Below, in pieces: positions 5,831 through 48,167 of a stretch of DNA of 64,000 bases. Within the stretch, counting starts at the first letter, position 1, and the number at the start of each line of letters is the position of its first letter. Origin of the DNA: Zanthoxylum bungeanum (lineage: Eukaryota; Streptophyta; Magnoliopsida; Sapindales; Rutaceae); NCBI GenBank assembly GCA_019454045.1, contig SKCR01034761.1:101813-165812 (forward strand), read 5' to 3'. The notes below the pieces were generated by a model, which did no database searches, was not told the DNA's origin, and was given only the letters and a program-made list of their open reading frames with translations. A program made the position numbers and the translations under genes.

Positions 5831-5849
5831 GTCCCCGGCAACGGCGCTA
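5831..5849 (-). other. Athila primer-binding site (copy A)
   Basis: Reads TAGCGCCGTTGCCGGGGAC on the minus strand, the plant Athila-type PBS (usually quoted as complementary to a tRNA-Asp 3' end) with one change at the start. It lies six bases inside the LTR edge at 5856, the position expected for minus-strand DNA priming. Confidence 0.75.
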
Positions 5850-5855
5850 AAAACT

Positions 5856-7873
5856 TGACCGGCGCGTAATCACACACGTATAATGCAAGCGCACGTATCG
5901 TTCAAGTAGTATAAAAGTATCGATCCCACGAGGTCTTAAAACCTTTTTTTATTAATTATGAAGTTAAATGTTTAGAAGTATCTAATGGATTGGTTGTTTG
6001 ATTTGGTGGTGACTTTAAAACTTAAAACAAGTAAATAAAATTGCTTGAAAGTAGATTGAAGAAAATTCAAATTTATAAAACTATCCAGGTTTAAGAATCC
6101 TTCCAATATCTTTTTAAAAGATGAAGTGGTTATTTTACATTTGTGTGATATATTGGTTTATTAACTTGGAACACGAAATTATGTAAAAGCCTCTTCCGAT
6201 GGTCAAATACAAATACCCAATATAACCCAATTAATCATATTCCTATGTTAACCAAGTTATCTGAATTCATTAAGATTAAGTTCCAATTATGGCTACCCCC
6301 ACCCGATAGGTATATTCCTATCATCTAAGGAAATCTCTTAAACGGTTATTTATCCTCAATGAAGATCGTGGGCTATTAAGTCTAAGGTCTTAAACTTAAA
6401 ATCTCTTTTCCAAGTTCATTTTAAGTTTACCGAATCAATCTTATTAATTGGCCAGTTAACAATATGCATTAAGACTAAGGCTCAATAAATAAACTTTTAT
6501 ATTACCCAAACCATAATTTAACCCCTTATAAACCGGTGATATTGGACTTCATCACAACCCTAAATAATTGGTTTAGTTACGACACATATTTACGGCTAGT
6601 AAAAATAAAAGACATAAATTAAATGCTGAAAGTAAATGCTGAAAAGTAAATGCTGAAAGTAAATTGCTGAAAAGTAAATGCTGAAAGTAAATTGCTGAAA
6701 AGTAAATAAAGTAAAAGTACAATAAAAGAAAATGATGAGGTAAAAGGATCAACTTTTATTACTTTTATTTTTGATATCTCCCTTAATATAATATATTAAC
6801 TTTGCATGATAATTACCAACCAGCCATATAAGTGGTATCTAGATTAAGTCAAATTAATAATTAATTACCAACCGACGAATCAGGCGGTATCCAGTTTAGT
6901 CAGGTTAAAACCAATTTAAATAATTACCAACCAATAAATATGGCGGTATCCTCGTTAAGTCGGGTTTCAACTAGTTTATTTATTATAATTAAAAGAGATT
7001 AATCTAAATATTAGTAATAAAAGTTTTACATTTTACCCCAACAATGGGGAGTTACCTCTTCATTACTGAAAAGTAAAAACTGAAAATTAAAGAAAGAAAA
7101 GTATTGTGCGTAAAAGTAAATTACAGAAAGTAAAAACTGAAAAGTAAAGAAAAGAAAGTGCGAAAGCTGAAATTAATTACTGAAAACTGTAAATAAACAA
7201 ACAAGATACAATCATCTTAGTATTCTTAAGGAATTCCTTAGAAGAAAGTATGAATTTACAAATGAAATGGCTTGGTATTTATAGGCAAAATTTTGCCTCC
7301 ATCAAATGCTTTATTAATTGATCCACTAATTGCTCCACCAATCCATTATTAATTGCTCCACTAATTGCTATCATGTTTGGTGGGAGTTTGACTATTTTTA
7401 TTATTTATTTATTTATTTATTTTTTGCTTTGAAAATGACTTTAATAATTACACATAACACACTTCCGGATGTTTAATCACTTTCGGTCATGAAATATTCC
7501 GAATTCGAAATTATTTTGTCTTTCAAAGTTGTAGATCTTTGAGTCTTCTTTAATTTGGAACTTGAATCAGCTCAAAACTGATAATGGAGTAAAAGGTTAT
7601 TTCCAAAATACGACAGATGCGCAAAATTGGAATTTCCAAAACTTCACTTCGTTAAAACGCCCTTTCAAGTTTCTAATCTCCAAAATTAATATGTCAAGTC
7701 CAATATTTGCCCTTATTTGACCCACATTTTGTCCTAAATGATTTCATTGAGTCCTAATATTATTTTATCTGCAAAATAAACTAAAACATATCAAAACGTT
7801 CATCAAACCCGAGAAACTAAACAAAATATTAAGTAAAATGGGCAGTAAATATTGATATATTTTCTGCACATCA
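5856..7873 (-). mobile_element. LTR of Athila copy A
   Basis: A 2,018-bp LTR, TGACCGGCG to CACATCA on the plus strand. It is flanked on the left by PBS plus gag and on the right by PPT plus 3' genes, so it serves as both the 5' and 3' LTR of what surrounds it. A TATA-like CCTATAAATACC is on the minus strand near 7275. It carries the conserved array of AACC-GCCATAT-GGCGGTATCC units (6820-6985) between inverted arms. Unlike the LTRs of B, C and D it lacks the GCGTCGCGACGC palindromes and the ACGT-core cluster. In their place (7310-7370) are short AATTGCTCCACTAATTG repeats. Confidence 0.85.
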
Positions 7874-7892
7874 CACCCCCAAACCTAACATT
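7874..7892 (-). other. Polypurine tract, copy A
   Basis: On the minus strand AATGTTAGGTTTGGGGGTG abuts the LTR start. The same motif abuts the LTR in copies B (19798) and C (45946). It would prime plus-strand DNA synthesis. Confidence 0.75.
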
Positions 7893-9125
7893 TTGCTAGT
7901 CCTCGAGAAAAAAAATAAAATAACATAACATAAATAATAAAGTTAAGCCACTTTCATAGGGATCACGATTGCATTTAGTGTATGCAACAAGCCTTTAAAC
8001 CCCTAGGTGTCCCTAGTGGACGAGTTGTAGTCTCGTGAGGGCTTACAACAACGATACCCACAAACGTTTTACAAAAGTAAAAAGATAATAAAACTAATGC
8101 ACACAAAACCAAAAAGACAAGAGAAAATAGAATAAAGAAGTTAGTGACTAAACAGATGAAACATATAATCCAAGTCAATAGTTGTTTTGTTTCATTCTAA
8201 ATTATCGAATAAGTAAATTCTTCGATTATTTTTACCAATCTCCATATACACAGTCGACAAAATATTAATCAACTCATTTTTTCCACAATAGTCACAAGTA
8301 CAGTTGAGAAGAAAGTAATATTTTTGTCCTAAAGTTATATCAGATTTCACACCTTTTTTTTAAGCAATGGAATAATTTTTCTGATTTTTTTCTTTGATTT
8401 ATTTATTTATATACAAAATCATCCATCTATGTAGCGAGTTTTGGGTCAGTGACTCCCAAACCAGTTGCTTTAGGGCACTCGGTGTTAAGACACCCATACG
8501 GACTTAATTACTCAGACTTCATATATATATATATTTGGCAACATCTTTGATCCATGTAACGAGCTTTGGGTCAGTGACTCCCAAACCAGTTGGTTTTAGG
8601 GCACTAGGTGTTAAGACACCCTTACAGACTTAATAACTCGGATCTCAGACATTTTTTATTTTCTTATACATTTTTTTATTTTTTATTCCTTTTTTTTTAT
8701 CCCATCGCTTTTTTAGATGCTTCCTCCAATTAAACTAGAGCACTTAATATTACAAACTTTTCAATTATAGCTCATGTATGTATGTTACTATGTATGTTGA
8801 TAGTACCTGTCAACTGAACATATGAAGATTCATTTTAGTCAGTATTATAGAGAATTCACAAATTAAATTATTCAAAAGGAAATAAACAAAAATTAACTTG
8901 TTCCGAAATAGGTTGAGATACGTCTCAGTAGTGGAATTTCCTTACACAACTATCTCTTACACCAATTTCACCCGATTAATCAAATTTAAAACATAAAAAA
9001 ATAAAATATTTTTGTAATTTTTAAAATTTTTCAGTTTTTTTTGTATTTTTCGAAAAATTTTAGACTAAAAATAAAACAATAAAAACAAGATCAAATTAAC
9101 TATTCCCTTGCCCCAAACCTAAATG
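7893..9125 (-). other. Non-coding 3' region, copy A
   Basis: No gene. It holds a strongly conserved block near 7950-8060 (short inverted repeats CTAGG...CCTAG and CGAG...CTCG) and two direct repeats of ~110-120 bp (about 8429-8520 and 8555-8640). Each repeat contains the hairpin-forming GGTGT-TAAG-ACACC. A second PPT-like motif (CCCCAAACCTAAA on the plus strand) sits near 9110. The same arrangement is present in copies B and C, so it is part of the family and not random filler. Confidence 0.7.
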
Positions 9126-9145
9126 AGACATTGTCCCCAATGTCT
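9126..9145 (-). other. Conserved GNRA-type hairpin, copy A
   Basis: In the element RNA this reads AGACAUUG-GGGA-CAAUGUCU: eight perfect pairs closed by a GGGA loop, which fits GNRA. It lies ~70 nt after the LOG stop codon. It is identical in copies B (21072-21091) and C (47168-47187). Confidence 0.65.
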
Positions 9146-9212
9146 TAAACAATAGAATAATAGTTTAGAAAATGGTACCTGGTTAGCTGAAATTCTACAT
9201 CTAAGTGAAAAA

Positions 9213-9862
9213 TTACAGGTTAAGATCCAGATTTATCCGACGCATCTTACCACGATCATCATCGGACCAGTTTATCTTGGAAAGAATGGGGTCAATTTGT
9301 GGTTCAAAGGCTAAGATTTGATCAATTAAATATGGGGCAGTTCTGGCAGTTTAGAGAAGTTCTTTTACAGGTTTTGACACGAACCCATTTCTACGGGCAT
9401 CATCAAGAAACACACATAGATATCATAGAATCCTTCAATGTTAAACAGTCCAAGTGGTTTCTAGTGTATGTTCAGGTTTGCCCAAGATAACACTGTAAAA
9501 ATTTCCTCTATTGTGCCCAAGCCACTGGCAAAACAATAAAAGCATTAGCACGGTTAATCATTTCTACCATTCGTTCAGAAATACCTGGCATAATTAGTTT
9601 CGTCGTTTGATGATCCAATAAGATTCGCCTCTGCCAAAGGTTTTGGGATGAATCCCAAAACTTGGCTGCCTTCATCCTGTACAGCCTTTGAAACGATCCC
9701 CATTAGTCCAAGATTGCCACCGCCATATACTAACTGCATATTCGTTGCAGCGATGACTCGACCCAATTCCTGTGCTGCTGCTACATATTCTGGTTTAACA
9801 CCAACACTAGTACCACAAAACACACAAATGTTTACAACTCGTCTTCTTGAAGTGGCTTCCAT
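9213..9862 (-). pseudogene. LOG-type cytokinin-activating enzyme, broken (copy A)
   Basis: Similar to plant LONELY GUY (LOG) enzymes, cytosolic phosphoribohydrolases that cut cytokinin riboside monophosphates into free cytokinin and ribose phosphate. The ATG at 9862 opens a clean frame for ~85 residues, with NICVFCGTS at the N-terminus and the nucleotide-binding YGGGNLGLMG. It then loses frame near SSN (about 9605). A base is missing exactly in the PGGxGTxxE active-site motif near 9525, so no active enzyme can be made. The remainder, to the stop at 9213, is recognisable in other frames. No introns are visible although plant LOG genes have several, which fits capture from an mRNA. About 84% identical to copy C over the first 86 residues (by eye). 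It follows the Cys-rich ORF, same strand. Confidence 0.85.
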
Positions 9863-9930
9863 ATTTTTGTGTTTCTTTTTTCAGCTCTAGATGCCTTCAA
9901 GAGTGCAATGATGAGTTGAATTTATAGAAC

Positions 9931-9955
9931 CTGAAAGGGGTGAGTAATAATAGCA
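9931..9955 (-). promoter_or_regulatory. 3' splice-acceptor-like site before LOG (copy A)
   Basis: On the minus strand TTACTCACCCCTTTCAG|GT: a branch-point-like TTACTCAC, a pyrimidine run and CAG, 68 nt upstream of the LOG ATG. The same motif stands before LOG in copies B and C. Confidence 0.5.
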
Positions 9956-10115
9956 CAAGTATATTCCAACGGACGATTAGTGGCAAAATAGTAAATCGTG
10001 AAAGGTCAAAAAGTAACATGGATCCTGTCGGAAAAAAATAACAAAATAAATCACAATTATTAAGAAAAGACAAAGAGATATAATAATTACATTAATGTAA
10101 CGGCTTGAATGACGT

Positions 10116-10604
10116 CTATCCGTCAGGGACAAGATTCCCATCCAATTTTCTTATAAATTGGCAAACAGGGTCTTTTAGAGTCAAATTCCCGAGACTTAAC
10201 TGTTGTCTTTCTTTTCGGAGTTGTGTATGTAATTTGCGGATGGCTATATGAACATATCCACTGGGATGCATATCAAGAGTCGAAGATATATCATCTAAAG
10301 ACTCTTTACTCAAGCCATCCCTAATGAATTTCATTTTATCTTCGCGATTATCAAACACCATTCCTAAAGAATGACAACGAGTATTACAATTCCAGCGTGC
10401 ACATTTGTAACAAACACCCATTTGCTTAGCTCTACGTTTATTTGCATAGGTGCTTTTTCCAAAACCAGGCAAATAAGAATTATAAGAATCAGAATACTCA
10501 CCTGCTAATCGGACCCGTGCTTCGATTACCCAATGAATGTCATTAGGAATACCTTTGATCATCAGAAGTCTCATCCGTTCCAAGCGAGTTTTGTAGACTT
10601 TCAT
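10116..10604 (-). CDS. Basic Cys-rich putative nucleic-acid-binding protein (copy A)
   Basis: An uninterrupted 162-aa frame lying between integrase and LOG. It has a basic N-terminal helix-like region (KVYKTRLERMRLL), then ANKRRAK at about residues 54-60 followed at once by CYKCARWNCNTRC (spacing CX2CX4CX3C), then a charged C-terminal part ending in FIRKLDGNLVPDG. In copy B the protein starts ~20 residues earlier (MEEALANL). Here one base is lost just after that ATG, so the first usable start is 10604. A basic run followed by paired cysteines and a downstream N...KFIRDGL recalls the cysteine-rich nucleic-acid-binding proteins of carlaviruses, though cysteine spacing is shorter. This is a resemblance of pattern only. 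A zinc-binding RNA/DNA-binding role is inferred. It is the only copy here with its body intact. Confidence 0.65.
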   Translation of the reverse strand: MKVYKTRLERMRLLMIKGIPNDIHWVIEARVRLAGEYSDSYNSYLPGFGKSTYANKRRAKQMGVCYKCARWNCNTRCHSLGMVFDNREDKMKFIRDGLSKESLDDISSTLDMHPSGYVHIAIRKLHTQLRKERQQLSLGNLTLKDPVCQFIRKLDGNLVPDG

Positions 10605-10681
10605 CAGAGAATTTTGAGGGAGAGAAAGAAATTGCTTGTGAAGATTTGTGAGAGCTTCAACATCCTAAAATGCGTCTTAAC

Positions 10682-10700
10682 CTGTAAAAACTAAACACAC
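10682..10700 (-). promoter_or_regulatory. 3' splice-acceptor-like site before the Cys-rich ORF (copy A)
   Basis: On the minus strand GTTTAGTTTTTACAG|GTT, just upstream of the position where copies B and C start this protein. The matching site in B is 22621 and in C 48724. Confidence 0.45.
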
Positions 10701-10783
10701 AAAAATTAAAAACACACACATCACAATATATACAAAAATTGCTTGGGTTGCCTCCCAGCTAGCGCTAAGTTTAATGTCATTAG

Positions 10784-12049
10784 CTAGACATGATTTCCCG
10801 AACGGTAGGCTGGATCTGAAAGTGTGACACTTTCTTTTTGTCGCTCAAATGATTCTCCCAGTAGTGCTTGACACGCTGGCTGTTAACTTTGAATGTGTTA
10901 CTCGACTTGGGATTGTATATCTCAATAACTCCGTAGGGTAACACCTGCGTAATCACAAATGGACCTTACCATTTTGATTTCAGCTTTCCAGGAAAAAGTT
11001 TCAACCTTGAATCGTACAACAACACTTGCTGCCCTGGTTCCAAATTTACGCACTATTTTTCGGTCATGCAATTTCTTGGTCTTCTCTTTGTACAGTTTGG
11101 CATTCTCATAAGCCTGTAGGCGAAATTCCTCCAACTCATTGAGTTGGTGAATTCTTTTCTCTCCTGCAGCTTGTGGATCAAGATTCAACTTCTTCAGTGC
11201 CCAGTATGCCTTGTGTTCAAGCTGAAATGGCAGATGGCATGCTTTCCCGAACACCATTTGATATGGGGACATACCAATGGGTGTCTTATAAACTGTCCGG
11301 TAGGCCCATAATATGTCATCTAGTTTTTCAGACCAGTCCTTCCTTTTTGATCCAACGGTTCTTTCCATGATTCGTTTGATCTCCATGTTTGAAACTTCAA
11401 CTTGCCCGTTTGACTATGGATGATAGGTTGTGGCAACCTTATGAGTAACTCTGTATTTGGATAGGAGTGCATCGAAGTATCTGTTGCAGAAAAGAAATGT
11501 GAGCCACCATCGTTGATAATTGCCCGAGGTGTCCCGAAGCGAGTGAAAATATTCTTTTTAAGGATTTTGATCACCACTTTTGAATCATTGGACGGCACTA
11601 CAATCGCTTCAACCCATTTGGAGATGTAGTCTACTGCAACCAGTATGTACAGGTTTCCGAATGATGGAACAAATGGTCCCACAAAAATTAATAACACATA
11701 CATCAAATATCTCCACTTCCAGAATGTTTTGCAAAGGTCCTTCATTTCTTCTGGAAATATTTCTCGTTCTCTGGCACCTGTCACATTAAATAGCAAATAG
11801 ATAAGCATTTTTAAAAAAAATGGGCCAGAACAAACCTGATTGTAGGACTTTGGCTGCAGTTTTGTTTCCACTGAAATGTCCGCCGTAAGGTGATGAATGG
11901 CAATGCTGCAGGACACTATTGACCTCCTCTTGTGGAACACACCACCTCAATAATTGATCCGCACAGCGTTTGAATAGGTATGGCTCATCCCAGACATAGT
12001 GCTTGACTTCTTTGAAGAATTTCTTCCGTTGCTGAGTTTTCCATTCCAA
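10784..12049 (-). pseudogene. Athila integrase, broken (copy A)
   Basis: The minus strand holds a degenerate integrase. It has the zinc-binding N-terminus ([16 protein letters not shown], with the paired cysteines of the second half out of frame), then the catalytic core ([18 protein letters not shown], then SKWVEAI, then INDGGSHF for the second Asp). The third acidic residue region is only seen in another frame. The C-terminal domain ([20 protein letters not shown] onward) is at 10922-11386. At least three frameshifts break it. Integrase would join the DNA copy to the chromosome. About 90% similar to copy B in the readable parts. Confidence 0.8.
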
Positions 12050-13757
12050 CGGCCATTTTCCTGATACTATGTAGTTGACATAGTCAGCATACCAAGGGAC
12101 TTCTTGTTGTTTAATGGCAACATCTGTTTATCTGGAAACGTTTCTTTGATTATTAGTTCTTTGCCAGCTGTATCTCCATTCTCAAGCCTCGATAAATGAT
12201 CTGCCACTTGGTTTTCTGTCCCTTTCCTGTCTCTGATCTCAACGTCAAATTCTTACAGAAGAAGCATCCAACGGATCAATCTAGGTTTGGCATCTTTCTT
12301 CGCGATCAAATACTTGATTGCTGAATGATCTGTGTAGACAACCACTTTGGGACCCAGTAGATAAGAGCGTAATTTATCAAAAGCAAACATAACTGTAAAC
12401 AACTCATTTTTAGTGGTTGTGTAGTTGAGATGAGCTTCATTAAGAGTTCTGCTGGAATAATAAATGGCATGGAAGATCTTTGCTTTCCGCTGTCCCAAAA
12501 CTACACCTACAGCAAAATCACTAGCATCGCACATCACCTCAAATGGAAGGGTCCAGTCCTATGCTATTATGATAGGGGCAGAGACCAGCTTCTGTTTTAG
12601 GATCTCAAAGGCTTCCTGGCATTCTTTGGTGAAGTTGAAAGACACATCTTTCTCTTGAAGATTGAAAAGAGGTTTTGCAATTTTTGAGAAGTCTTTGATA
12701 AATCTCCTGTAAAAGCCATCATGTCTGAGAAAACTTCTAATTCCTATGACAGATGTGGGTGGAGGTAGTTTTTCAATTGTCTCGATCTTTTGCTTTGTCT
12801 ACCTTGATTCCCTTTTGTGAGATCCGGTGTCCCAGGACGATGTCTTCTTGTACCATAAAATGACATTTCTCCCAATTGAGTACCAAGTTTGTATCTTCGC
12901 ACCATTGTAACACATGTTCCAGATTTTACAAGCAGTGGTCAAAAGAATCTCCAAACACAGAGAAGTCATCCATAAAAACCTCCATACAATCTGATGGCCA
13001 TCATGCAACGTTGAAATATGGTAGGTGCATTACATAATCCAAATGGCATTCTGCGGAAAGCAAAAGTACCATAGGGACATGTAAAAATGGTTTTCTCCTG
13101 ATCTTTTGGGGCGATGGCAATCTGATTGTACCCCGAATATCCATCCAGAAAACAATAGTACTCATATCCCGCTAGTCTGTCTAACATCTGATCAATGAAT
13201 GGCAGTGGAAAATGGTCATTCTTCGTTGCTTTATTCAGTTTTCTGTAGTCCATGCATACTCTCCATCCAGTCACTGTTCTTGTTGGAATCAGCTCATTCT
13301 TTTCATTTGTGACTATAGTAATTCCTCCTTTCTTTGGTACACACTGGATAGGACTCACCCAGGTGCTATCTGAGATAGGGTAAATGATGCCAGCATCCAA
13401 CCATTTGATGATTTCTTTCTTCACGGCCTCCTTCATGATTGGATTAAGTCTCTGTTGATGCTCCACTATGGGTTTGTACTCATCATTCATCAGAATCTTG
13501 TGCATGCAAAATGATGGACTAATGACTCGAATGTCTGCTTTAGTCCAGCTAATGGCTTTCTTATGTTCACGTAATACTCCCAGCAACTTTTCTCCCTGCT
13601 CCAATGTTAGCGAATAAGAAATAATAACAGGTAATTCAGAAGAGTTTCCAAGAAATGCATACCTGAGATGGCTCGGCAGTAACTTCAGCTCCAGCTGTGG
13701 TGGTTCTTCAATTGAGGGCTTGATTTGATCTTTCTTCGGAAGTTCCAGACTTTCCAC
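12050..13757 (-). pseudogene. Athila reverse transcriptase-RNase H, broken (copy A)
   Basis: The RT is readable at 12966-13757: YPISDSTWVSPIQCVPKKGG, VCMDYRKLNKAT, CFLDGYSGYNQI and FAFRRMPFGLCNAPTIFQRC. The frame breaks at the MDD active-site region, near 12960-13010, where a short deletion removes the FSDMLEQSMEV stretch seen in copy B. RNase H is at 12253-12537, with the catalytic-type motif [10 protein letters not shown] and later [10 protein letters not shown], followed by the [19 protein letters not shown] end in another frame. These are Ty3/Gypsy motifs of the Athila type. Confidence 0.8.
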
Positions 13758-13775
13758 TAGTGGTGTCGATTTGAA

Positions 13776-14558
13776 TCAAAATGGCTTGTCAAGATAGTTG
13801 ATACATTCCATAATTTCAGTATCTAGCTCGCTATCAGTCATGTTGGTGATGCAAGCTTCAAGTTTGTCCGTGGGAATTATATCAGTATCCTGAACGATAT
13901 TATCAACAACATCAATTCTGAAACATTCTTCTTCCTTTTCATCGCTCGAGAATTTCATGGCTTTGAAAACATTGAAAGTAACTTCTTGGTCCTAAACTTT
14001 CATGGTTAGTTCTCCTTTTTGTACATCAATCACAGTTCGACCTATAGCCAAGAATGGTCTCCCAAGGATGATAGAAACATATTTATCTTATTCCATGTCA
14101 AGGATTATGAAATCTGCTTGGAGAATGAGTTTGTCGACTTTGACCAGCACATCTTCAATGACACATCTAAAAAATGCGAGCGTTCGATCAGCAAGTTGCA
14201 GAGAGACTCAGGTAGGCATTGCTTCTCTGATTTGTAGTTTCCTGTAAATAGAAAAAGGCATTAAATTAACACTTTCACCTAAATCACATAAAGCCTTACC
14301 AATATAATGTTCTCCAATGGTGCAATGAACTGTGAAACTGCCAGGATCTTTCAACTTCATGTGAAGTTTCCTCTGAATGATGGCGCTGCATTCCTCCGTC
14401 AATGATACTGTCTCGTAATCTCCCAATCTCCGTTTTCGTGAAAGAATGTCTTTCATGAATTTGAAATAGCTGGGCATTTCTTCCAAGGGTTCTGCAAATG
14501 GAATGTTGATATGCAGCTTTTTGAACACCTCTAAGAATCGAGAAAACTGTTTATCCAA
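13776..14558 (-). pseudogene. Athila protease region (copy A)
   Basis: The minus strand encodes the aspartic protease segment of the polyprotein: FTVHCTIGEHYIGKALCDLG followed by ESVNLMPFSIYRKL. The active-site Asp-Leu-Gly is present, but the next residue is Glu where copies of the family are expected to have Ala. ILGRPFLA-type sequence lies in another frame near 14040. An acidic linker (DEKEEECFRIDVVD) at 13776-13958 leads to RT. Two frame breaks are visible. Confidence 0.75.
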
Positions 14559-15352
14559 TTTGTTTTTCTGGAGTCGTTGAGGAAAAAGTGGAGGTAAAGT
14601 GATTCTTTCTTGATCTTTTTTCTTTGCTTCTTTTTCCTCAATTTATGGAACTGCATCTTTTGGAACTTCTTCAATGGTTGCGTTGATTCCAACATCTTTG
14701 TTGATTTCAATACCACTTTTCAAGGTAATGGCTTGACATTGCTCCTTCCCTCGATTTCTTGGATTTGGTTCTGTGTTGCTGGGAAGATTTCATGGCGATA
14801 TGTAACTCTGTGCATTGGCCAGTTGTCCCATTTTATTTTCCAGTGCTTTAATAGAGGATGAATGGCTTTGATTCAATGCTACTTGATTTTGAACCATAGC
14901 TGCTAAATCATCGTATTTTGCTTCTTGCTTCTTCAACTGGGCCAGCACTTCTGTTATTCCTGGTTCTTTTTCATGCTCCTGGCTTTTATTTGGTTGTTGG
15001 AATCTATGTGGTGGGTAGTTATTTTGCCCTTAATTGTTGCTCCATGCAAAATTTGGGTGATTCCTCCACACTGGGTTATAAGTGTTTGAATATGGATTGT
15101 TCCTCTATCTGTTGAAATTATTGACATAGTTCACTGTCTCTTCTTTTTGGTTGTAAGATTCTGACTCAGATACTCCTCCAAATGGTGAACCTGTGGATCC
15201 ACCATTAAGTTTCATGTTAAGAGTTTCCATATTTTTTCAAATCACATCCAGCTTGGAATTCAGTGCTGTGTTGGCTCCAACTTCATAAATTCCTGCAATT
15301 CTTTGGATCATGCTACTTTCTGTTGGCCATAAAGAATTATTGTTGGCCATTT
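14531..15352 (-). pseudogene. Athila gag, 3' part (copy A)
   Basis: The minus strand shows the C-terminal gag in broken frames: MANNNSLW near 15350, YNQKEETVNYVNNFNR, NPYSNTYNP, an Asn/Gln-rich stretch, SSSIKALENKMGQLANAQSY, a Lys/Glu-rich stretch, and KLDKQFSRFLEVFKKLHI leading to the protease. Similarity to copy B stops within GGCCATTT at about 15352. Eight bases later the LTR of element P starts. Confidence 0.75.
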
Positions 15353-17795: not shown

Positions 17796-19797
17796 TGAAC
17801 GGCGTAAACACACACGTATAACGCAAGCGTACGTATCGTTCAAGTAGTATAAAAAGTATCGATCCCACGAGGACTTAATACCTAAGTTATTAATTTTATG
17901 AGGTTAAATGATTACTAGTATCTAACAGGTTGTTTAATTGATTTGAAATGACGACGATTCTAAATTTAAAGATTAGTAAATAAAATTGTTCGAAGGTAGA
18001 TTTTAAGAAAATTCAATATTAAAAAATATCTAGGGTTGTGATTTATTCCAATATTATTTAAAGATAAAGTGGTTATTTTATAATTGGGTAATATATTGAT
18101 TTATTAACCTGGAACACTAATTTATGTAAAAGCCTCTTCCGATGGTCAATTACAAATACCTAGTATAATCCAATTGAACCATATGTATATGTCAACCAAA
18201 TTACCTAGATTCATTATGATTAAGTTCCAATTATGGCTCCCCCGCCCGACAGGTATATTCCTATCCTGTAAGGAAATCTATTGAAAGGGTTATCTATCCT
18301 TAAGGAAGATCGTGGGCTATTGAATCTAAGGTCTTAAACTTAAAATCCATATGTCTAGTTCATTTTAAGTTTACCTAATCAATTTAATTTATGGACAGTT
18401 AATTAAAGATCATTAAGATTAAGACTTAATAAATAAATCTTTATATTACCCAAATTATAATCTAACCCTTATAAACCCGTGATATTGGATTTCATCACAA
18501 CCCTAGATAACTAATTTAGTTACAACACATAACTAGGGCTAATACAAACTTAAAAGACATAAAATGAAAATGCTGAAAAGTAATTGCGGTGAGTAAAATG
18601 CTGAAAAGTAAATTACAAATGAAATAAAATGCTAAGGCAAAAGGAATTACTTCTACTACTACTAATTTAGATATCTCCCATAAAATAATATATAAACTTG
18701 TGATAATATTTTACCAACCGACCAATCTGGCGGTATCCTGATTAAGTCAAATTAAGTCCAACCAGCCATATAGGTGGTAATTTTTGTCCATAATCCAGCC
18801 ATAAAGGCGGTACCAAAGTAAATTTTTCAACCGACCAATCTGGCGGTATCCTTGATTAATCAGGTTTAAACCAGATTAAATTGAATTGTCAACCGACCAA
18901 TATAGCGGTATCCTTTATTAATCAGTATTTTAAATAGTAAATATATCATTTTTAAGAGAGATTAATCTAAATAGCAATAGTAAAATAATTACCTTTCACC
19001 TTAGCATAGGGAAGTTACCTCCTCATAGTGAATAGTAAAAACTGTAAAATAAGAAAGTAAATTACTATTATTACAAAAAGTAATTAAAATTATTACAAAA
19101 CAAAAATTAAAACGAAACTTAGAGAGAGAAGAATTCCCTATTTACATCAAATAAGAGAGAGGGAATGGTACACTGAAATCAAAAATTTCAAGCTCTATTT
19201 ATAGGCGCGAGTAAGGTCCCAGCGTCGCGACGCTGGGTACAATTCAGCGTCGCGACGCTGGGTACAGTGAGACGTGGCCCATTCTCTGCTTGACACGTGG
19301 CAAGGCGGCTAAGAGGATAAGGTCGACACGTGTAATGGCGGCTGGAACTCAATTATGAAGCTGACGTCATTGATGACGTGGCACTGTTCATGATGTCATT
19401 GGTGACGTGGCACTGTTCATGATGTCATTGGTGACGTCATGATGATGTGGCATGCGCACGTTAGCGGATCTTCTGTGGTGGTGACACGTGGCACGGCGCA
19501 TGTTAGCAAAGTCAAACTTCTCAAATTCTGACCAGTTGACCAGGCGCATGTTAGCAGATTCGGCGTATGCTGGGCGTTGCGACGCTGACGGTCTGGGCGT
19601 CGCGACGCTGGAAATTACCAAAATGCCCTTTTTCGCCAATTTTCACTATTTTGCCCCAAATCACCTCCAGAATGTCCTGAAACTTTATTTATCTATAAAA
19701 TAACACAAAACACATCAAAATATTCACAAGACTCAAGAAATTATACAAAATACTAGGATAAATGAGTGGGAAATAGTGATAAAAATACCACTCATCA
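17796..19797 (-). mobile_element. 3' LTR of Athila B
   Basis: 2,002 bp, TGAACGGCG to CACTCATCA on the plus strand. Contains the AACCGACCAATCTGGCGG array (18715-18925) between inverted arms (about 18649-18700 and 18930-18990). The minus-strand TATA box CTATAAATAG is near 19195-19205, GCGTCGCGACGC palindromes are near 19220-19260 and 19575-19610, and the ACGT-core cluster lies at 19265-19500. Confidence 0.95.
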
Positions 19798-21140: not shown

Positions 21141-21801
21141 CTACAGGAAATTAAAGGTAAGATCCAGATTAATTCTACGCCTCTTACCACGATCGTCCTC
21201 GGACCAATTTATCTTTGATATGATAGGGTCAACTTTTGGTTCATAGGCTATGAATTGGTCAATTAGATCTGGAGCAGTTCTGGCAGTAAAGAGGAGTTCT
21301 TTTAAAGGTTTTGACACGAACCCATTTCTTCGAGCATCATCAAGAAACACACAAAGAAAATCATAAAACCATCAACGTTGTACAGCCCAATTGGTTTCTG
21401 GTGTATGTTTAGGTTCGCCCAAGATAGTACAATAAAAATTTCCTCCAATGTGCCCAAGCCACCTGGCAAAGCAATAAAAGCATCAGCACGGTTAATTATT
21501 TCTATCAGTCGTTCAGACATACCTGATACGATCAGTTCCTCTCCGTTTGATGGTTCAATAAGATTTGCCTCTGCCAAGGGTTTTGGGATGATTCCCAAAC
21601 GTGACTGCCTCCTTCCTGTACGGCCTTTGAAACAATCCCCATTAGTCCAAGATTGCCTCCTCCATATATTAAGTGCATATTCCTTACAGCTAAGACTCGA
21701 CCCAATTCCTGTGCTGCTTCTATGTATTGTGGTTTAGTACCAACAGTACTACCGCAAAACACACAAATGTTTTCAACTCGTCTTCTTGAAGTGGTTTCCA
21801 T
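21141..21801 (-). pseudogene. LOG-type cytokinin-activating enzyme (Athila B)
   Basis: ATG 21801. Readable in order: NICVFCGS at the N-terminus, YGGGNLGLMG (residues ~45-54), GIIPKPLAEANLI, MSERLIEI, the active-site motif PGGLGTLEE (near 21455), NVDGF, DDARRNGFVSKPLKELLF, and a C-terminal KINWSEDDRGKRRR tail. The full length of about 215-220 codons matches LOG enzymes (roughly 200-230 aa). The active-site residues are all present, but single-base deletions (near 21600, near 21375 and at the very end) split it over three frames. There is no intron. LOG enzymes act in the cytosol on cytokinin nucleotides. It is in the sense direction of the element, 255 bp after the Cys-rich ORF. About 90% identical to copy C over the first 68 residues. 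Confidence 0.9.
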
Positions 21802-22055: not shown

Positions 22056-22604
22056 CTATGCGTCAGGGACAAGCTTCCCATCAAATTTTCTTATAAATTG
22101 GCAAACAAGGTCTTTTTGAGTCAGATTCCCGAGACTTAACTGTTGTCTTTCTTTTTGAAATTGTGTATGTAATTTGCGAAAGGCTATGTGAACATGTCCA
22201 CTGGGATGCGTCTCAAGAGTCGAAGATATATCATCTAAAGACTCCTTACTCAAGCCACCCCTAATGAATTTAATTTTGTCTTCGCGATTTTCAGACACCA
22301 TTCTAAAAGAACGACAACGAGTATTGCAACTTCATCGTGCACATTTGTAACAAACACCCATTTGCTTAGCTCTACGTTTCTTTGCATAGGTGCTTCTTCC
22401 AAAACCAGGCAGAGTTGAAATAAAAGATTCAGAAGACTCACCTGCCAATCGAACTCGTGCTTCAATTACCCAATGAATATCATTGGGCACACTATGGATC
22501 GTCAGTAGTCTCATTCGTTCCAAGCGAGCTTTGTAAACTTTCAATAGAGATTTTTGTGGGAGAGAAGGAAATTGCTTGCGAAGATTTGCGAGAGCTTCTT
22601 CCAT
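22056..22604 (-). pseudogene. Basic Cys-rich putative nucleic-acid-binding protein (Athila B)
   Basis: Start ATG at 22604 (MEEALANLRKQF), chosen because it lies 16 nt after a conserved splice-acceptor-like site and matches the start in copy C. About 182 codons. KVYKARLERMRLL, a VPNDIHWVIEARVRLAGE segment, YAKKRRAK then CYKCAR, and CNTRCRS are all visible. A TGA replaces the Trp codon of copy A directly after CYKCAR (near 22334), so the chain would end in the middle of the cysteine motif. The C-terminal part to 22056 stays open in the same frame. Nucleic-acid binding is inferred; see copy A. Confidence 0.7.
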
Positions 22605-22744: not shown

Positions 22745-23886
22745 TTATGCTGGATCTGAAAGTGTGACACTTTCTTTTTGTCGCCCAAATGATTCTCTCC
22801 AGTAGTGCTTGACACGCTGACTGTTAACCTTGAATGTGTTGTTGGTATTGGGATCCAGTAACTCAACAGCTCCATATGGTAAAACCTGAGTGATCACAAA
22901 TGGTCCAGACCACCTAGATTTCAACTTTCCTGGGAAAAGTTTCAACCTCGAATTGTACAACAACACCTGCTGCCTTGGTTCCAACTGTCTGTGCACTATT
23001 TTTCGGTCATGCCATTTCTTTGTCTTTTCCTTGTATAATTTGGCATTGTCATAAGCATGTAGGCGAAATTCTTCCAATTCGTTGAGTTGGTGAAGTCTTT
23101 TCTCTCCTGCAGCTTGTGAGTCAAGATTCAACTTCTTCAGTGCCCAGTACGCCTTGTGTTCAAGCTCAACTGGCAGATGGCATGCTTCCCAAACACCAAT
23201 CGATATGGTGACATACCAATGGGTGTTGTAAGCTGTTCGGTAGGCCCATAATGCATCATCTAGTTTTGTTGACCAGTCCCTCCTTGTTGATCCAACGGTT
23301 CTTTCTAGGATTCTCTTGATCTCTCTGTTTGAAACTTCAACCTGTCCATTTGACTGTGGATGGTAAGCTGTGGCAATCTTGTGAGTAACTCCATATTTGG
23401 ATAGGAGTGCATCAAAGTATCTGTTGCAGAAATGTGAGCCACCATCGCTGATAATTGCCCGAGGTGTTCCGAATCGAGTGAAAATGTTCTTCTTTATGAA
23501 TTTGATCACAACTTTTGAATCATTGGATGGCAGTGCAATTGCTTCGACCCATTTGGAGACGTAGTTACAGCAACAGGATGTACAAGTTTCCAAATGATGG
23601 AACAAATGGTCCATGAAATCAATACCCTATACATCGAATATCTCCACTACCAAAATGTTTTGCAACGGTCCTTCATTTCTTCTTGAAATATTCCCTGTTC
23701 TCTAGCACCTGTCACATTGAAAAGCAAAAAGATAAGCATCTTTAAAAAGTGTGGGCCAGAACAATCCTGATTGAAGGACTTTGCTGCAGCAGTTTTGTTT
23801 CCGCTGAAGTGTTCGCCGCCGTATGGTGATGAATGACAGTGTTGCAAAACACTGTTGACCTCCTTCTGTGGAACACACCATCTCAA
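22745..23886 (-). pseudogene. Athila integrase (Athila B)
   Basis: The N-terminal zinc region (HCHSSPYGG...HFSGNKT) is at 23647-23886, broken by two small insertions. A long frame, 22745-23614, carries the core: [34 protein letters not shown] (second catalytic Asp), [20 protein letters not shown] (catalytic Glu), then [10 protein letters not shown]. The C-terminal domain has [15 protein letters not shown] and ends in TLSDPA at a natural stop. The first catalytic Asp region (near 23625) falls in a frame break. An extra frame slip near 23230 alters the stretch just after the core. Confidence 0.85.
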
Positions 23887-23925: not shown

Positions 23926-25701
23926 TCAGACATAGTGCTTGACTTCTTTGAAGAACTTCTTCCGTTGCTGAGTTGTCCATTCCAACGGCCATTTTCCTGA
24001 CACAATGTAGTTGACATAGTCAGCATACCAAGGGACTTCCTGTTGTTTCATGGCGAACAGCTGTTCATCTGGAAAAGTTTCTTTGATTGATAATTCTTTG
24101 CCAGCTGTTTCTCCATTCTCGAGCCTCGATAAGTGGTCTGCCACCTGGTTTTCTGTTCCTTTCCTGTCTCGAATCTCCACGTCGAATTCTTGCAGAAGAA
24201 GTATCCAACGGATCAATCTGGGTTTGGCATCTTTCTTTGTGATAAGATATTTGATTGCTGAATGATCTGTGTAGACCACCACTTTAGGACCCAGCAGATA
24301 GGAGCGGAATTTGTCAAAAGCGTATACAACTGCGAGCAACTCCTTTTCAGTGGTTGTGTAGTTGAGTTGAGCTTCATTCAGAGTTCTGCTGGAGTAGTAA
24401 ATGGTGTGGAAAATCTTTGCTTTGCGTTGTCCCAAAACTGCACCTACAGCAAAATCACTAGCATCACACATTACCTCGAATGGAAGGGTCCAATCTGGTG
24501 CTACAATGATGGGGGCAGAAATCAGCTTCTGTTTTAAGATCTCGAAAGCTGCCTGGCATTCTTTGGTGAAGTTAAAAGGCACATCCTTTTCCAGAAGATT
24601 GCAAAGAGGTTTAGCAATCTTGGAAAAGTCTTTGATAAATCTTCTGTAAAAAACCTGCATGTCCAAGAAAACTCCGAATCTCTTTGACAGATGTTGGTGG
24701 AGGTAGTTTCTCAATTGTCTCGATCTTTGCTTTGTCTACCTCAATCCCTTTTTGTGAAATCCGGTGTCCAAGAACAATGCCTTCCTGCACCATGAAATGA
24801 CATTTCTCCCAGTTGAGTACCAGGTTTGTATCTTCGCACCTTTGTAATACCTGTTCCAAATTTTGCAAACAATGGTCAAAAGAATCTCCAAACACAGAAA
24901 AATCATCCATAAAAACCTCCATACTCTGCTCCAGCATGTCTGAGAAGATGGCCATCATACAACGCTGAAATGTAGCAGGAGCATTACATAATCCAAATGG
25001 CATCCTGCGGAAAGCAAAAGTACCATAGAGACATGTAAAGGTAGTTTTCTCCTGGTCTTCTGGTGCGATGGCAATCTGATTGTACCCTGAATATCCGTCC
25101 AGAAAGCAATAGAACTCATGTCCTGCCAATCTGTCTCTCATCTGGTCAATAAATGGTAGTGGGAAATGGTCCTTTCTTGTGGCTTTATTGAGTTTCCTGT
25201 AGTCCATACATACTCTCCATCCAGTCACTGTTCTTGTTGGGATCAACTCGTTCTTTTCATTGGTGACCACAGTAATTCCTCCTTTCTTTGGTACACACTG
25301 CATATGACTACCCAAGTGCTATCTGAGATGGGGTAAATGATGCCAGCATCCAACCATTTGATGATTTCTTTCTTCACAACTTCCTTCATGATTGGATTGA
25401 GTCTCTGTTGATGCTCCACTGTGGGTTTGTATTCATCATTCATCAGAATCTTGTGCATGCAAAATGATGGACTAATGCCTCGAATGTCTGCTATAGTCCA
25501 GCCAATGGCTCTTTTGTGCTCTCGTAACACTCTCAGCAACTTTTCTTCCTGCTCCAATGTTAGTGAATAAGAAATAATAACAGGTAATTCAGAAGAGTTT
25601 CCAAGAAATGCATACCTGAGATGGCTCGGAAGTAACTTTAGTTCCAGCTGTGGTGGTTCTTCAATCGAAGGTTTGATTCGATCTTTCTTTGGCAATTCCA
25701 A
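23926..25701 (-). pseudogene. Athila reverse transcriptase-RNase H (Athila B)
   Basis: RT is in two overlapping frames (25243-25701 and 24611-25315): ELPKKDRIKPSIEEP lead-in, QCVPKKGGITVVTNEKNE, VCMDYRKLNKATRKDHFPLP, CFLDGYSGYNQIAIAPEDQ, RRMPFGLCNAPATFQRC, the active-site FMDDFSVFG and [13 protein letters not shown] frame break lies at STWV (about 25310). RNase H is at 23926-24714: [42 protein letters not shown] and [10 protein letters not shown] stop replaces a Trp codon after EVKHYV (23926), cutting integrase off. RT copies the RNA; RNase H removes it. Confidence 0.9.
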
Positions 25702-26444: not shown

Positions 26445-27971
26445 GGCTTCTGCAAATGGGATGTTGATGTGCAGCTTTTTGAATATCTCCAGGAAACGAG
26501 CAAACTGTTTGTCCAGTTTATTTTTCTGAAGACGCTGAGGAAATGGTGGTGGTGGAGTGATCTTTCTTTTTCTTCCATCTGTGGAACTGTAACTTTTGGA
26601 ACTTCCTCAGCAGCTGTTGTTTTGACTCCAACGTCTTTGTTGATTTCAGTACCGCTTTTTAAGGTAATGGCTTGACATTGCTCCTTCCCTCGGTCCTTGG
26701 ATTTGGTTTTGTGTTGCTGGGAAGATTACCTGGCGGTCTGTAACTCTGAGCATTGGCCAGTTGGCCAATTTGATTCTCCAGTGCTTTGATGGAAGCTGAT
26801 TGGCTCTGAATCATAGCTTCATATCTTTTTAATTGAGCTAACATCTCTGCCATCACTGGTTCATTTGTCTACTCCTGGCCTTTATTCTGTTGCTGGAATC
26901 CAGGTGGTGGATAGTTCCGCTGTTGGCCTGAATTGTTGCTCAATGAAAAATTAGGATGATTCCTCCACCCTGGGTTGTAGGTGTTGGAATATGGATTGTT
27001 CCCCTGCCTGTTGAAATTGTTGACATAATTCACCATTTCTTCATGTTGATTTGATTCTGGTGCTCCTCCATATGGTGAACTTGTGGATCCAGTGGTAAGA
27101 GTCTCCATGAATTTGCAATATTTGATCTAGCTTGGTGTTGACTGCTGTATTAGCTCCAACTTCATAAATTCCTGCAATTCTTTGAATCAGACTTCTTTCT
27201 GTTGGCCACAAGGAATTGTTGTTAGCCATTTCTTCAATTAGTTCCCAAGCTTGATCTTCTCCTTTTGCCATTAAAGCTCCTCCAGCAGCAGCGTCAATAT
27301 GGTTCTCATTATTCCAGAAAGTCCATTATAGAATGTTTGGACTTGAAGCCATTTTGGAATCTCATGGTGTGGACATTTCCGGAGTAAATCTTTGTACCTT
27401 TCCCAAGCTTCGTAGAGAGTTTCTGAGTCTTGTTGCACAAAGGATGTGATGTCATTCCTCAGTTTTCCAGTTCTGGCTGGTGGTGGAAAATACTTTGCAA
27501 GAAATTTGGTGGATAAGGTGTTCCATGTTGTGATAGAACCTGCTGGTAATGAATGTAGCCAGGCTTTAGCTCTGTCCTTCAAGGAGTATGGGAAAACACG
27601 CAGTCTCATTGCTTCTTTAGCTTCTCGGTTGTAATTGAAAGTACCGCAAACTTCCAGGAAGTTGCTGATGTGGGCATTAGGATCTTCAGTTGCATTTCCT
27701 CCAAACTGAACTGACTTCTGAATCATCTGAATGCAAGTTTTGATGTCACCAGCATTTGCTCGTAATGGAGGGAGTACAATACATGAAATGAGTCTGTCAA
27801 CCACCGGAATGGTTCTGTCTCGAATGGGAATTGGTGGTGCAACTCCAAAGGTTCAGGTTCCATGTTGACTAAAGCTTCTTGGGCTTCTCGCCTTTCCCTT
27901 CTCAACTGTCTGATAGTTCTTTCAATTTCTGGGTCAAGCGGTCGTAGTTCAAAGCTTCTGGTTCGTCTCAT
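26445..27971 (-). pseudogene. Athila gag (Athila B)
   Basis: ATG 27971 (MRRTRSFELRPLDPEIERTI), 15 nt after an acceptor-like site. The main capsid-type part is at 27271-27804 (MIQKSVQFGGNATEDPN, NFLEVCGTFNYNREAKEAM, FPYSLKDRAKAWLHSLP, FLAKYFPP, ETLYEAWERYKDLLRKCPHH). Then come MAKGEDQAWELIEEMANNN, an Asn/Gln-rich stretch, SIKALENQIGQLANAQSY and a Lys-rich end leading to the protease. Frames break near 27840, 27285, 27100, 26865 and 26600. No CCHC knuckle was seen, as is usual for this group. Confidence 0.85.
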
Positions 27972-28096: not shown

Positions 28097-29506
28097 AAAA
28101 CTTGACCGGCGTAAACACACACGTATAACGCAAGCGTACGTATCGTTCAAGTAGTATAAAAAGTATCGATCCCACGAGGACTTAATACCTAAGTTATTAA
28201 TTTTATGAGGTTAAATGATTACTAGTATCTAACAGGTTGTTTAATTGATTTGAAATGACGACGATTCTAAATTTAAAGATTAGTAAATAAAATTGTTCGA
28301 AGGTAGATTTTAAGAAAATTCAATATTAAAAACTATCTAGGGTTGTGATTTATTCCAATATTATTTAAAGATAAATTGGTTATTTTATAATTGGGTAATA
28401 TATTGATTTATTAACCTGGAACACTAATTTATGTAAAAGCCTATTCCGATGGTCAATTACAAATACCTAGTATAATCCAATTGAACCATATGTCTATGTC
28501 AACCAAATTACCTAGATTCATTATGATTAAGTTCCAATTATGGCTACCACCCCCGCCCGACAGGTATATTCCTATCCTGTAAGGAAATCTATTGAAAGGG
28601 TTATCTATCCTTAAGGAAGATCGTGGGCTATTGAATCTAAGGACTTAAACTTAAAATCCCTATGTCTAGTTCATTTTAAGTTTACCTAATCAATTTAATT
28701 TATGGCCAGTTAATTAAAGAGCATTAAGATTAAGACTCAATAAATAAATCTTTATATTACCCAAATTATAATCTAACCCTTATAAACCCGTGATATTGGA
28801 TTTCATCACAACCCTAGATAACTAATTTAGTTACAACACATAACTAGGGCTAAACAAACTTAAAAGACATAAAATGAAAATGCTGAAAAGTAATTGCGGT
28901 GAGTAAAATGCTGAAAAGTAAATTACAAATGAAATAAAATGCTAAGGCAAAAGGAATTACTTCTACTACTACTAATTTAGATATCTCCCATAAAATAATA
29001 TATAAACTTGTGATAATATTTTACCAACCGACCAATCTGGCGGTATCCTGATTAAGTCAAATTAAGTCCAACCAGCCATATAGGTGGTAATTTTTGTCCA
29101 TAATCCAGCCATAAAGGCGGTACCAAAGTAAATTTCCAACCGACCAATCTGGCGGTGGTATCCTTGATTAATCAGGTTTAAACCAGATTAAATTGAATTG
29201 TCAACCGACCAATATAGCGGTATCCTTTATTAATCAGTATTTTAAATAGTAAATATATCATTTTTAGGGAGATTAATCTAAATAGCAATAGTAAAATAAT
29301 TACCTTTCACCTTAGCATAGGGAAGTTACCTCCTCATAGTGAATAGTAAAAACTGTTAAATAAGAAAGTAAATTACTATTATTACAAAAAGTAATTAAAA
29401 TTATTACAAAACTAAAAATTAAAACGAAACTTAGAGAGAGAAGAATTCCATATTTACATCAAATAAGAGAGAGGGAATGGTACACTGAAATCCGAAATTT
29501 CGAGCT

Positions 29507-29516
29507 CTATTTATAG
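29507..29516 (-). promoter_or_regulatory. TATA box of the Athila B 5' LTR
   Basis: CTATAAATAG on the minus strand, ~600 bp into the LTR. The matching box is present in the 3' LTR (near 19195-19205) and, with small changes, in C (near 45265), D (near 63284) and A (near 7275). Confidence 0.7.
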
Positions 29517-29524
29517 GCGCGAGT

Positions 29525-29830
29525 AAGGTCCCAGCGTCGCGACGCTGGGTACAGTTCAGCGTCGCAACGCTGGGTACAGTGAGACGTGGCCCATTCTCTT
29601 ATTGACACGTGGCAAGGCGGCTAAGAGGATAAGGTCGACACGTGTAATGGCGGCTGGAACTCAATTATGAAGCTGACGTCATTGATGACGTGGCACTGTT
29701 AATGACGTCATTGGTGATGTGGCACTGTTCATGACGTCATTGGTGAAGTCATGATGATGTGGCATGCGCACGTTAGCGGATCTTCTGTGGTGGTGACACG
29801 TGGCACGGCACATGTTAGCAAAGTCAAACT
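29525..29830 (-). promoter_or_regulatory. ACGT-core (bZIP-type) motif cluster upstream of the TATA box
   Basis: Just upstream of the TATA box in element sense lie repeated GACACGTGGC (G-box/ABRE-like), TGACGTCA (CRE/C-box-like) and TGACGTGGC motifs: about ten ACGT cores in 300 bp, together with GCGTCGCGACGC palindromes at 29534 and 29908. Plant bZIP factors in ABA, stress and light responses bind such cores. The same cluster occurs in the 3' LTR, in C (45330-45650) and in D (63350-63660) but not in A or F. Confidence 0.55.
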
Positions 29831-30109
29831 TCTCAAATTCTGACCAGTTGACCAGGCGCATGTTAACAGATTCGGCGTATGCTGGGCGTTGCGACGCTGA
29901 CGGTCTGGGCGTCGCGACGCTGGAAATTACCAAAATGCCCTTTTTCGCCAATTTTCACTGTTTTGCCCCAAATCACCTCCAGAATGTCCTGAAACTTTAT
30001 TTATCTATAAAATAACACAAAACACATCAAAATATTCACAAGACTCAAGAAATTATACAAAATACTAGGATAAATAAGTGGGAAATAGTGATAAAAATAC
30101 CACTCATCA

Positions 30110-47995: not shown

Positions 47996-48167
47996 AAGTA
48001 TCTTCCAGAGGACGATTGGTAGCGAATTAATATCGTGATAGTAAAAAAGGTATGGATCCTGTCGGAGAAAATTAAAAGAAAACAACAAAACAAATCACAA
48101 TTATTAAGAAAAGACAAAGAAATATAATATTTACAAGAAAAGTAACGGCTTGATTGACGTCTATGCG

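What the first reader, a model, noticed from the sequence alone, without database searches (positions are those of the whole stretch)
9213..9862. LOG cytokinin-activating gene carried by an Athila retrotransposon family (three copies)
Seen: copies A (9213-9862), B (21141-21801) and C (47247-47902) hold a LOG-like gene in the sense direction, always between the Cys-rich ORF and the hairpin/PPT, and with no introns. YGGGNLGLMG is present in all three and PGGLGTLEE in B and C. Known: plant LOG enzymes release free cytokinin from its nucleotides and their genes normally have several introns. Inferred: an ancestral Athila captured a LOG mRNA and kept it through several rounds of transposition, so it may raise cytokinin in cells where the element is active, for example in meristems or germ-line precursors. 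I do not know of a description of such an element.
Basis: partly seen in the sequence, partly recalled or inferred. Interest (0 to 1): 0.88.

Follow-up and report, generated by a model that had tools for sequence, protein, structure and literature searches.

The report
Jumping gene carrying plant-hormone enzyme gene
A very abundant family of plant jumping genes carries, and appears to keep in working order, its own copy of an enzyme gene that in plants switches on the growth hormone cytokinin, even in shortened versions of the element that have lost the machinery to jump by themselves.

Summary
In detail: three Athila-type elements in the window carry an intronless LOG-like gene downstream of integrase and a Cys-rich ORF. 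All three window copies are broken. Elsewhere in the genome many are whole: 16 of 20 loci fetched by LOG rank have an ORF of 216 aa or more, 8 of 20 fetched by non-coding DNA a 217-218-aa frame. A 20-mer from the LOG catalytic stretch occurs 13,788 times (control 0). Variants shared between copies are mostly synonymous (11N:31S in the DNA-chosen sample; neutral about 2.5:1; omega 0.21), so the protein is selected. Catalytic Arg98 and Glu120 stand in 48 of 48 copies. The gene persists in two shortened forms without pol. Six sampled element LOGs join one clade with Populus, Xanthoceras, Reevesia, Diplodiscus and Paulownia proteins, apart from the host's intron-bearing LOGs. Not found in print: a disordered basic + LxLxL (EAR-like) tail, and a partner protein matching carlavirus Cys-rich families. 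LOG in Athila-like elements was already noted (Steinbauerova 2011, recalled; cited in PMC9289625), so the kind is known; scale, selection, short forms, tail and pairing are what I add. Enzyme activity and effect on cytokinin are untested.

The parts
9217..9862 (-). LOG gene of element A, broken (frameshifts, stops)
10119..10658 (-). Cys-rich nucleic-acid-binding-like ORF of element A (Carla_C4 1.3e-6)
5856..7873 (-). 3' LTR of element A; its far end is followed by a PBS-like stretch (5831) and a gag-like start, so it seems shared with a second internal region
   Evidence: outer boundaries approximate
7874..15352 (-). internal region of element A (LOG, Cys-rich ORF, INT, RT-RH, PR, part of gag), 5' end cut off
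17796..19797 (-). 3' LTR of element B
21154..21801 (-). LOG gene of element B, broken
22059..22604 (-). Cys-rich ORF of element B (one stop)
22745..23614 (-). integrase part of element B (PF00665)
23926..24714 (-). RNase H part of element B (PF17917, PF17919)
24611..25315 (-). reverse transcriptase part of element B (PF00078)
27271..27804 (-). gag part of element B (PF03732)
28103..30109 (-). 5' LTR of element B; PBS-like stretch at 28078
43889..45945 (-). 3' LTR of element C
   Evidence: boundaries approximate
47250..47902 (-). LOG gene of element C, broken; holds a 180-aa ORF at 47360-47902
48164..48667 (-). Cys-rich ORF of element C, broken
48846..49277 (-). protease-linker to integrase-tail fusion ORF, mark of the form that lost RT to INT

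Best explanation
The elements belong to an Athila-type Ty3/gypsy family that long ago captured a spliced LOG transcript. LOG is a standing accessory gene of the family, kept by selection on its protein, and it also survives in two non-autonomous forms (shown). Inferred: the protein is a working phosphoribohydrolase that frees active cytokinin bases from their nucleotides in cells where the element is transcribed. This would promote division or meristem-like and germ-line-like states, giving the carrying copy more new insertions that reach the next generation. The benefit must be at least partly tied to the carrying RNA or cell, because copies without pol keep the gene. Inferred more weakly: the basic + LxLxL tail takes part of the protein to the nucleus and to TOPLESS-type co-repressors, and the Cys-rich partner acts against silencing, as its viral relatives do.
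For: Copy number: 6,920 + 6,868 exact hits of a 20-mer from the catalytic stretch, reversed control 0 + 0; the 20-mer is in 43 of 48 aligned copies. Intactness: in 20 loci fetched around LOG-ranked hits, 16 have a LOG ORF of 216 aa or more. In 20 fetched of 39 non-window loci found by non-coding 3' DNA, 19 still hold LOG sequence and 8 a whole 217-218-aa frame. Selection: shared variants 11N:31S and singletons 38N:33S in the DNA-sampled set of 19 (window B plus 18 of the 20 loci; L035 and L045 dropped for too little LOG); 19N:55S and 56N:43S in the LOG-sampled set of 28; neutral N:S 2.52 at kappa 2.77, P 1.4e-9 and 3.5e-16 for the shared ones; omega 0.211 on 48 copies. By form, shared variants are 19N:40S (form I, 14 copies), 14N:29S (form II, 15) and 4N:20S (INT-bearing, 16). 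In form II the other ORF has 89N:52S shared (12 copies), so LOG is much the more constrained. Catalysis: Arg98 and Glu120 in 48 of 48; the PGG and GT positions in 46-48 of 48. Fold: model of relative P0001, pLDDT 82.8, best solved match Arabidopsis At2g37210, E 3.3e-19, TM 0.92 of target. Single capture: one clade with support 100/100 on a stem of 0.46; 10 of 10 fetched host LOG loci are split by introns, the element genes are not.
Against: No expression, enzyme or hormone data. The NCBIfam equivalog model for LOG enzymes is hit but far below its cut-off (116.8 against 300 bits); the library serves bacterial and archaeal annotation and no ordinary plant LOG was scanned as control. Of 146 full-length relatives in other sources, 26 lack the exact PGGxGTxEE string and 10 more have another residue at the place of Arg98 (6 of them Gln, P0009 and kin), so enzyme activity is not kept everywhere. 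LOG-ranked sampling favours whole genes, and the 15 form II copies counted were all sampled that way. Selection shows that the protein matters, not what for.
Confidence: 0.6

Rival explanations
1. The LOG-fold protein is kept as a nuclear regulator, not as an enzyme: the fold binds nucleotide or dimerises, and the basic + LxLxL (EAR-like) tail recruits TOPLESS-type co-repressors or chromatin factors to host or element targets.
For: Tail residues 207-217 keep their commonest residue in 40-48 of 48 copies, the three Leu of LxLxL in 46, 47 and 45; strict LxLxL in the last 14 residues of 121 of 146 full-length relatives; the tail lies outside the LOG fold (profile 4-203 against chain 8-207) and is disordered in the model; 6 relatives have Gln at the catalytic Arg; two host LOG ends read to a stop (L054, L058) and one partial end (L051) lack it.
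Against: Arg98 and Glu120 are invariant in the 48 copies of this genome, which a pure scaffold would not need; relatives around Xanthoceras have the basic stretch but no LxLxL. EAR and NLS meanings are recalled, not tested.
Confidence: 0.22
2. LOG is a passive passenger: captured once and copied along without function.
For: All three window copies are broken and 11 of the 19 DNA-sampled loci that hold LOG sequence lack a whole frame.
Against: Shared variants 11N:31S against neutral 2.5:1; the clade holds full-length open proteins from several eudicot genera.
Confidence: 0.04
3. The host, not the element, selects LOG: element copies serve as dispersed cytokinin-activating genes for the plant.
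For: Very many copies in one genome, many with an open frame.
Against: Singletons are partly relaxed (0.46-0.52 of neutral) while shared variants are constrained (0.14), the pattern of element-level selection with decay after insertion; the host has its own intron-bearing LOG set.
Confidence: 0.06
4. LOG stretch is kept for an RNA-level role (packaging, dimerisation, translation).
For: Retained in pol-less forms, where cis-acting RNA is what must be kept.
Against: Constraint is on amino acids; synonymous changes predominate among shared variants.
Confidence: 0.03

Closest known systems
Athila-like elements with LOGL4-like extra ORF (Steinbauerova et al. 2011, abstract recalled, paper not held) and YgdH-domain Gypsy consensuses of Citrus and Populus (PMC9289625, section 12 read)
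   Same: LOG-type domain as extra gene of a plant Gypsy element
   Different: Those mentions give presence only, as far as read or recalled; here copy number, selection, catalytic residues, shortened LOG-bearing forms, tail and Cys-rich partner are described
Plant LONELY GUY-type proteins At2g37210 and At5g11950
   Same: Fold, catalytic Arg and PGGxGTxEE; 52.5% identity over 177 and 45.9% over 172 residues
   Different: No introns, Leu in place of Tyr in PGGxGT, C-terminal basic + LxLxL tail, encoded by an LTR element
Orchid Ty3/gypsy elements with a captured m6A demethylase (PMC9289625)
   Same: Host-type enzyme domain taken into a Gypsy element
   Different: That one is an RNA demethylase found in two Phalaenopsis genomes; this one is a hormone-activation enzyme with relatives in several eudicot genera
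Carlavirus/allexivirus Cys-rich proteins (PF01623, PF05515)
   Same: Basic stretch + Cys cluster; both Pfam cut-offs passed by the element protein
   Different: 182 aa, encoded by an LTR element, named relatives in the listed hits are plant genome proteins; direction of transfer unknown
Non-autonomous LTR elements (TR-GAG, LARD; names recalled)
   Same: LTRs, PBS, PPT and target duplications with internal coding loss
   Different: They keep a hormone-enzyme gene instead of only structural or no genes

Membership tests
Athila clade of Ty3/gypsy LTR retrotransposons | LTRs with TG...CA ends and 5-bp target duplication | tested here: met
   Duplications read in B and in L010, L013, L015, L018, L019, L023, L027, i.e. 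8 of 9 elements looked at; the LTR ends of L020 were not in view
Athila clade of Ty3/gypsy LTR retrotransposons | gag, then RT-RNaseH before integrase, on one strand | tested here: met
   PF03732, PF00078, PF17917, PF00665 in this order on the minus strand of B
Athila clade of Ty3/gypsy LTR retrotransposons | extra ORFs between integrase and 3' LTR | tested here: met
   Cys-rich ORF and LOG
Athila clade of Ty3/gypsy LTR retrotransposons | RT phylogeny; absence of the additional RNase H that marks Tat | not tested
   No RT tree was built; the Athila name rests on layout and recalled PBS/LTR style
Athila clade of Ty3/gypsy LTR retrotransposons | Athila ORF-1 domain PF03078 | tested here: not met
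   Not hit by the ORFs scanned; PMC6317226 passages give it for only 16% of Athila elements, so it is not defining
LOG (cytokinin riboside 5'-monophosphate phosphoribohydrolase) | Pfam PF03641 and TIGR00730 above cut-off | tested here: met
   122.4 against 27 bits; 164.7 against 96.35 bits
LOG (cytokinin riboside 5'-monophosphate phosphoribohydrolase) | NCBIfam equivalog NF058542 above cut-off | tested here: not met
   116.8 against 300 bits; library for bacterial and archaeal annotation, no ordinary plant LOG was scanned as control
LOG (cytokinin riboside 5'-monophosphate phosphoribohydrolase) | catalytic Arg and Glu with PGGxGTxxE | tested here: met
   R98 48 of 48, E120 48 of 48; role of the residues recalled
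LOG (cytokinin riboside 5'-monophosphate phosphoribohydrolase) | fold | tested here: met
   Model of the close relative P0001, best match 2a33
LOG (cytokinin riboside 5'-monophosphate phosphoribohydrolase) | enzyme activity | not testable with these tools
   needs assay
EAR-motif repressors | LxLxL motif | tested here: met
   LDLNL end in this genome; 121 of 146 relatives; motif meaning recalled
EAR-motif repressors | co-repressor binding and nuclear location | not testable with these tools
   needs experiment
Carlavirus-type Cys-rich protein | Pfam Carla_C4 / Viral_NABP above cut-off | tested here: met
   28 against 20.9 and 30 against 23 bits for the L024 protein; of 5 relatives rescanned 3 pass at least one cut-off, 1 lies just below both and 1 has no hit
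Carlavirus-type Cys-rich protein | silencing suppression | not testable with these tools
   viral relatives do this (PMC12389679 passages)

The most novel reading that the evidence does not exclude
A retroelement lineage carries a two-gene host-manipulation set, a cytokinin-activating enzyme with a nuclear repressor-type tail and a virus-type Cys-rich protein, and the enzyme alone is worth keeping for non-autonomous derivatives, so that hormone manipulation is a selfish trait of the mobile element acting in cis on the cell that carries it.
Probability: 0.35. Interest if true: 0.92.

Novelty: new variant of a known kind. Interest (0 to 1): 0.74.

Why it matters
Mobile elements are usually seen as silenced cargo that reacts to host development. 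A family with more than ten thousand copies of a hormone-activating enzyme gene, selected at the protein level, would be an element that acts on development. It gives a directly testable case of a selfish element that may change its host cell's division state. It also means that LOG gene counts and transcript mapping in such genomes can be badly confused by element copies.

Tried and rejected
Chance insertion of separate host genes: rejected by the tree. Neutral passenger: rejected by shared-variant counts. Host LOG genes as the source of the thousands of hits: with a host-type exon peptide, 28 of the 150 scored hits are 67-95% identical and one 60%, the rest 49-56% (150 of 36,112 first-look candidates were scored). 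Context in viral contigs: 4 pattern matches, none confirmed. Per-form copy counts by 20-mers for the Cys-rich ORF, forms I and II and the INT-bearing form were designed but did not complete, so the share of each form in the genome is unknown. Host species not identified. A first strict regular expression for catalytic residues in relatives matched 99 of 146; it was too strict, and a position-based check gave 110 of 146 with Arg and the exact glycine-rich string. In the tree, host locus L053 was left out, being near-identical to L055, and several host rows lack a short exon that was not recovered.

Full report
What is there. The window lies in a 3.96-Gb genome of 51,709 contigs; the named relatives of its element proteins are eudicots, the species itself was not identified. 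Three Athila-type elements on the minus strand carry a LOG-like gene. Element B is complete, with 2-kb LTRs 97.96% identical, a PBS, a PPT and the duplication GAGCC. Its order in sense is LTR, gag, protease, RT-RNase H, integrase, Cys-rich ORF, LOG, hairpin with polypurine stretch, PPT, LTR (the protease is placed by position, it had no Pfam hit). A and C are truncated. LOG is broken in all three.

Copies elsewhere. A protein search of the genome scored 150 of 74,110 first-look candidates; all 150 matched at E below 1e-88, and by my count of the list 125 show no stop inside the match. That is no proof of a whole gene, since broken window copy C is one of them. In the 20 loci that I fetched from that list, 16 have a LOG ORF of 216 aa or more. 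The list favours whole genes. I therefore searched with non-coding DNA between LOG and the 3' LTR of B: 40 places scored out of 7,818 candidates, one of them B itself. 19 of the 20 hold LOG sequence and 8 have a whole 217-218-aa frame. A 20-mer of the catalytic stretch has 13,788 exact hits against 0 for its reversed control. At 8-12 kb per element this is roughly 3-4% of the genome (inference).

Three forms. Mapping on B shows INT-bearing elements; form I, in which about B positions 4266-6922 (end of protease to integrase) are missing at a shared junction, leaving gag, a protease/integrase-tail fusion, the Cys-rich ORF and LOG (9 of the 20 LOG-ranked fetched loci, and window copy C by its fusion ORF); and form II, with LTR, an ORF of about 430 aa weakly similar to the gag-to-protease region of element A, and LOG, without gag capsid, pol or Cys-rich ORF (11 of 20). 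In the DNA-sampled 20, 14 are INT-bearing (only 2.3 kb were read, so RT was not seen), 2 form I, 2 form II-like, 1 truncated and 1 without any match. In 7 loci with both LTRs in full the LTR pairs are 94.1 to 99.9% identical; two further loci, with nested or ill-paired LTRs, gave 89.3 and 79.8%. So some transposition has been recent. Duplications were read in B and 7 of 8 other elements looked at.

Selection. Variants were counted against the commonest codon in each column, separately for variants seen once and variants shared by two or more copies. Shared ones are 11N:31S in the DNA-sampled 19 and 19N:55S in the LOG-sampled 28; singletons are 38N:33S and 56N:43S. The neutral expectation excluding stops is 2.52:1 at kappa 2.77. 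Singletons are less constrained than shared variants (Fisher P 0.006, DNA-sampled set), as expected if selection acts on source elements and copies decay after insertion. Omega on all 48 is 0.211. LOG is constrained in each form, though form II was sampled by LOG rank only. Shared-variant pN/pS is 0.24 (DNA-sampled) and 0.13 (LOG-sampled) for the Cys-rich ORF, 0.13 for gag (8 copies) and 0.41 for the form II ORF (12 copies).

The protein. Arg98 and Glu120 are present in 48 of 48 copies. The AlphaFold model of P0001, a 90% identical relative, with 24 aligned relatives has mean pLDDT 82.8 and its best solved match is Arabidopsis At2g37210. The last 15 residues, which hold a basic stretch followed by LDLNL, are disordered, lie outside the profile match to solved LOGs, and are conserved. 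121 of 146 full-length relatives have LxLxL in the last 14 residues; the group around Xanthoceras has the basic part only. LxLxL is the recalled EAR repressor motif. Two host LOG ends read to a stop (L054, L058) and one partial end (L051) lack it; the other 7 host ends were not recovered.

Origin. The host has its own LOG genes, split by introns in all 10 loci fetched. In a tree of 52 sequences, 6 element LOGs of this genome join database proteins from Xanthoceras, Populus, Reevesia, Diplodiscus and Paulownia and many unnamed sources in one clade (100/100) with stem length 0.46, apart from 9 host LOGs and 2 Arabidopsis LOGs. A Parasponia protein is among further relatives (not in the tree). 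Limits: the tree holds few ordinary plant LOGs, and I did not see the genomic setting of the other species' genes, except that PMC9289625 reports the domain in Gypsy consensuses of Citrus and Populus (section 12 read). Among 146 full-length relatives, 26 lack the exact glycine-rich string and 10 more have another residue at Arg98, 6 of them Gln.

The partner. The Cys-rich ORF passes the Pfam cut-offs of Viral_NABP (30 bits, cut-off 23) and Carla_C4 (28, cut-off 20.9), and has 373 relatives among 627 candidates, including proteins of Populus, Xanthoceras, Acer, Orobanche and Rhamnella. Of five relatives rescanned, three pass at least one cut-off, one lies just below both and one has no hit. Related viral proteins are silencing suppressors in allexiviruses and potato virus M (PMC12389679, passages).

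Prior art. Paper searches led to PMC9289625 alone as a report of LOG in LTR elements, and showed nothing on the pairing, tail or short forms; other listed papers (such as PMC5425979 and PMC8087826) were seen as listings only, except PMC12389679 and PMC6256188, of which I saw passages, as I did of PMC6317226. The library lacks most subscription papers. Steinbauerova 2011 is recalled: two Athila-like elements with LOGL4 similarity.

Verdict. Observation confirmed; the capture-and-keep idea is well supported (about 0.93); the enzyme and cytokinin effect is likely but untested (about 0.6).

Noticed in passing
10119-10658, 22059-22604, 48164-48667: The Cys-rich ORF between integrase and LOG is related to carlavirus/allexivirus nucleic-acid-binding proteins; such proteins appear in several plant genomes (373 relatives).
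   Followed up: partly
5371-7876: The 3' LTR of element A runs on into a PBS-like stretch (5831) and gag-like start, so two internal regions seem to share one LTR, as after unequal recombination.
   Followed up: no
21056 and 47152: A second polypurine tract next to a GACATTGGGGACAATGTC hairpin lies inside the elements, about 1.2 kb before the 3' PPT.
   Followed up: no
P0009, P0011, P0012, P0017, P0018, P0029: Six related LOG proteins have Gln in place of the catalytic Arg, perhaps inactive enzymes kept for another role.
   Followed up: partly
61816-63879: A fourth LTR of a more diverged subfamily (about 75% identity to the others over about 600 bases) with a gag-like start to its left.
   Followed up: no
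30582-31389: Tandem array of an 82-bp unit, about 10 copies, GC-rich.
   Followed up: no
57290-58302: Two adjoining tandem arrays, periods 176 and 124 bp.
   Followed up: no
L058:257-466: One host LOG-like gene lacks the intron before KPVGLLN that other fetched host genes keep, yet is still split elsewhere.
   Followed up: no
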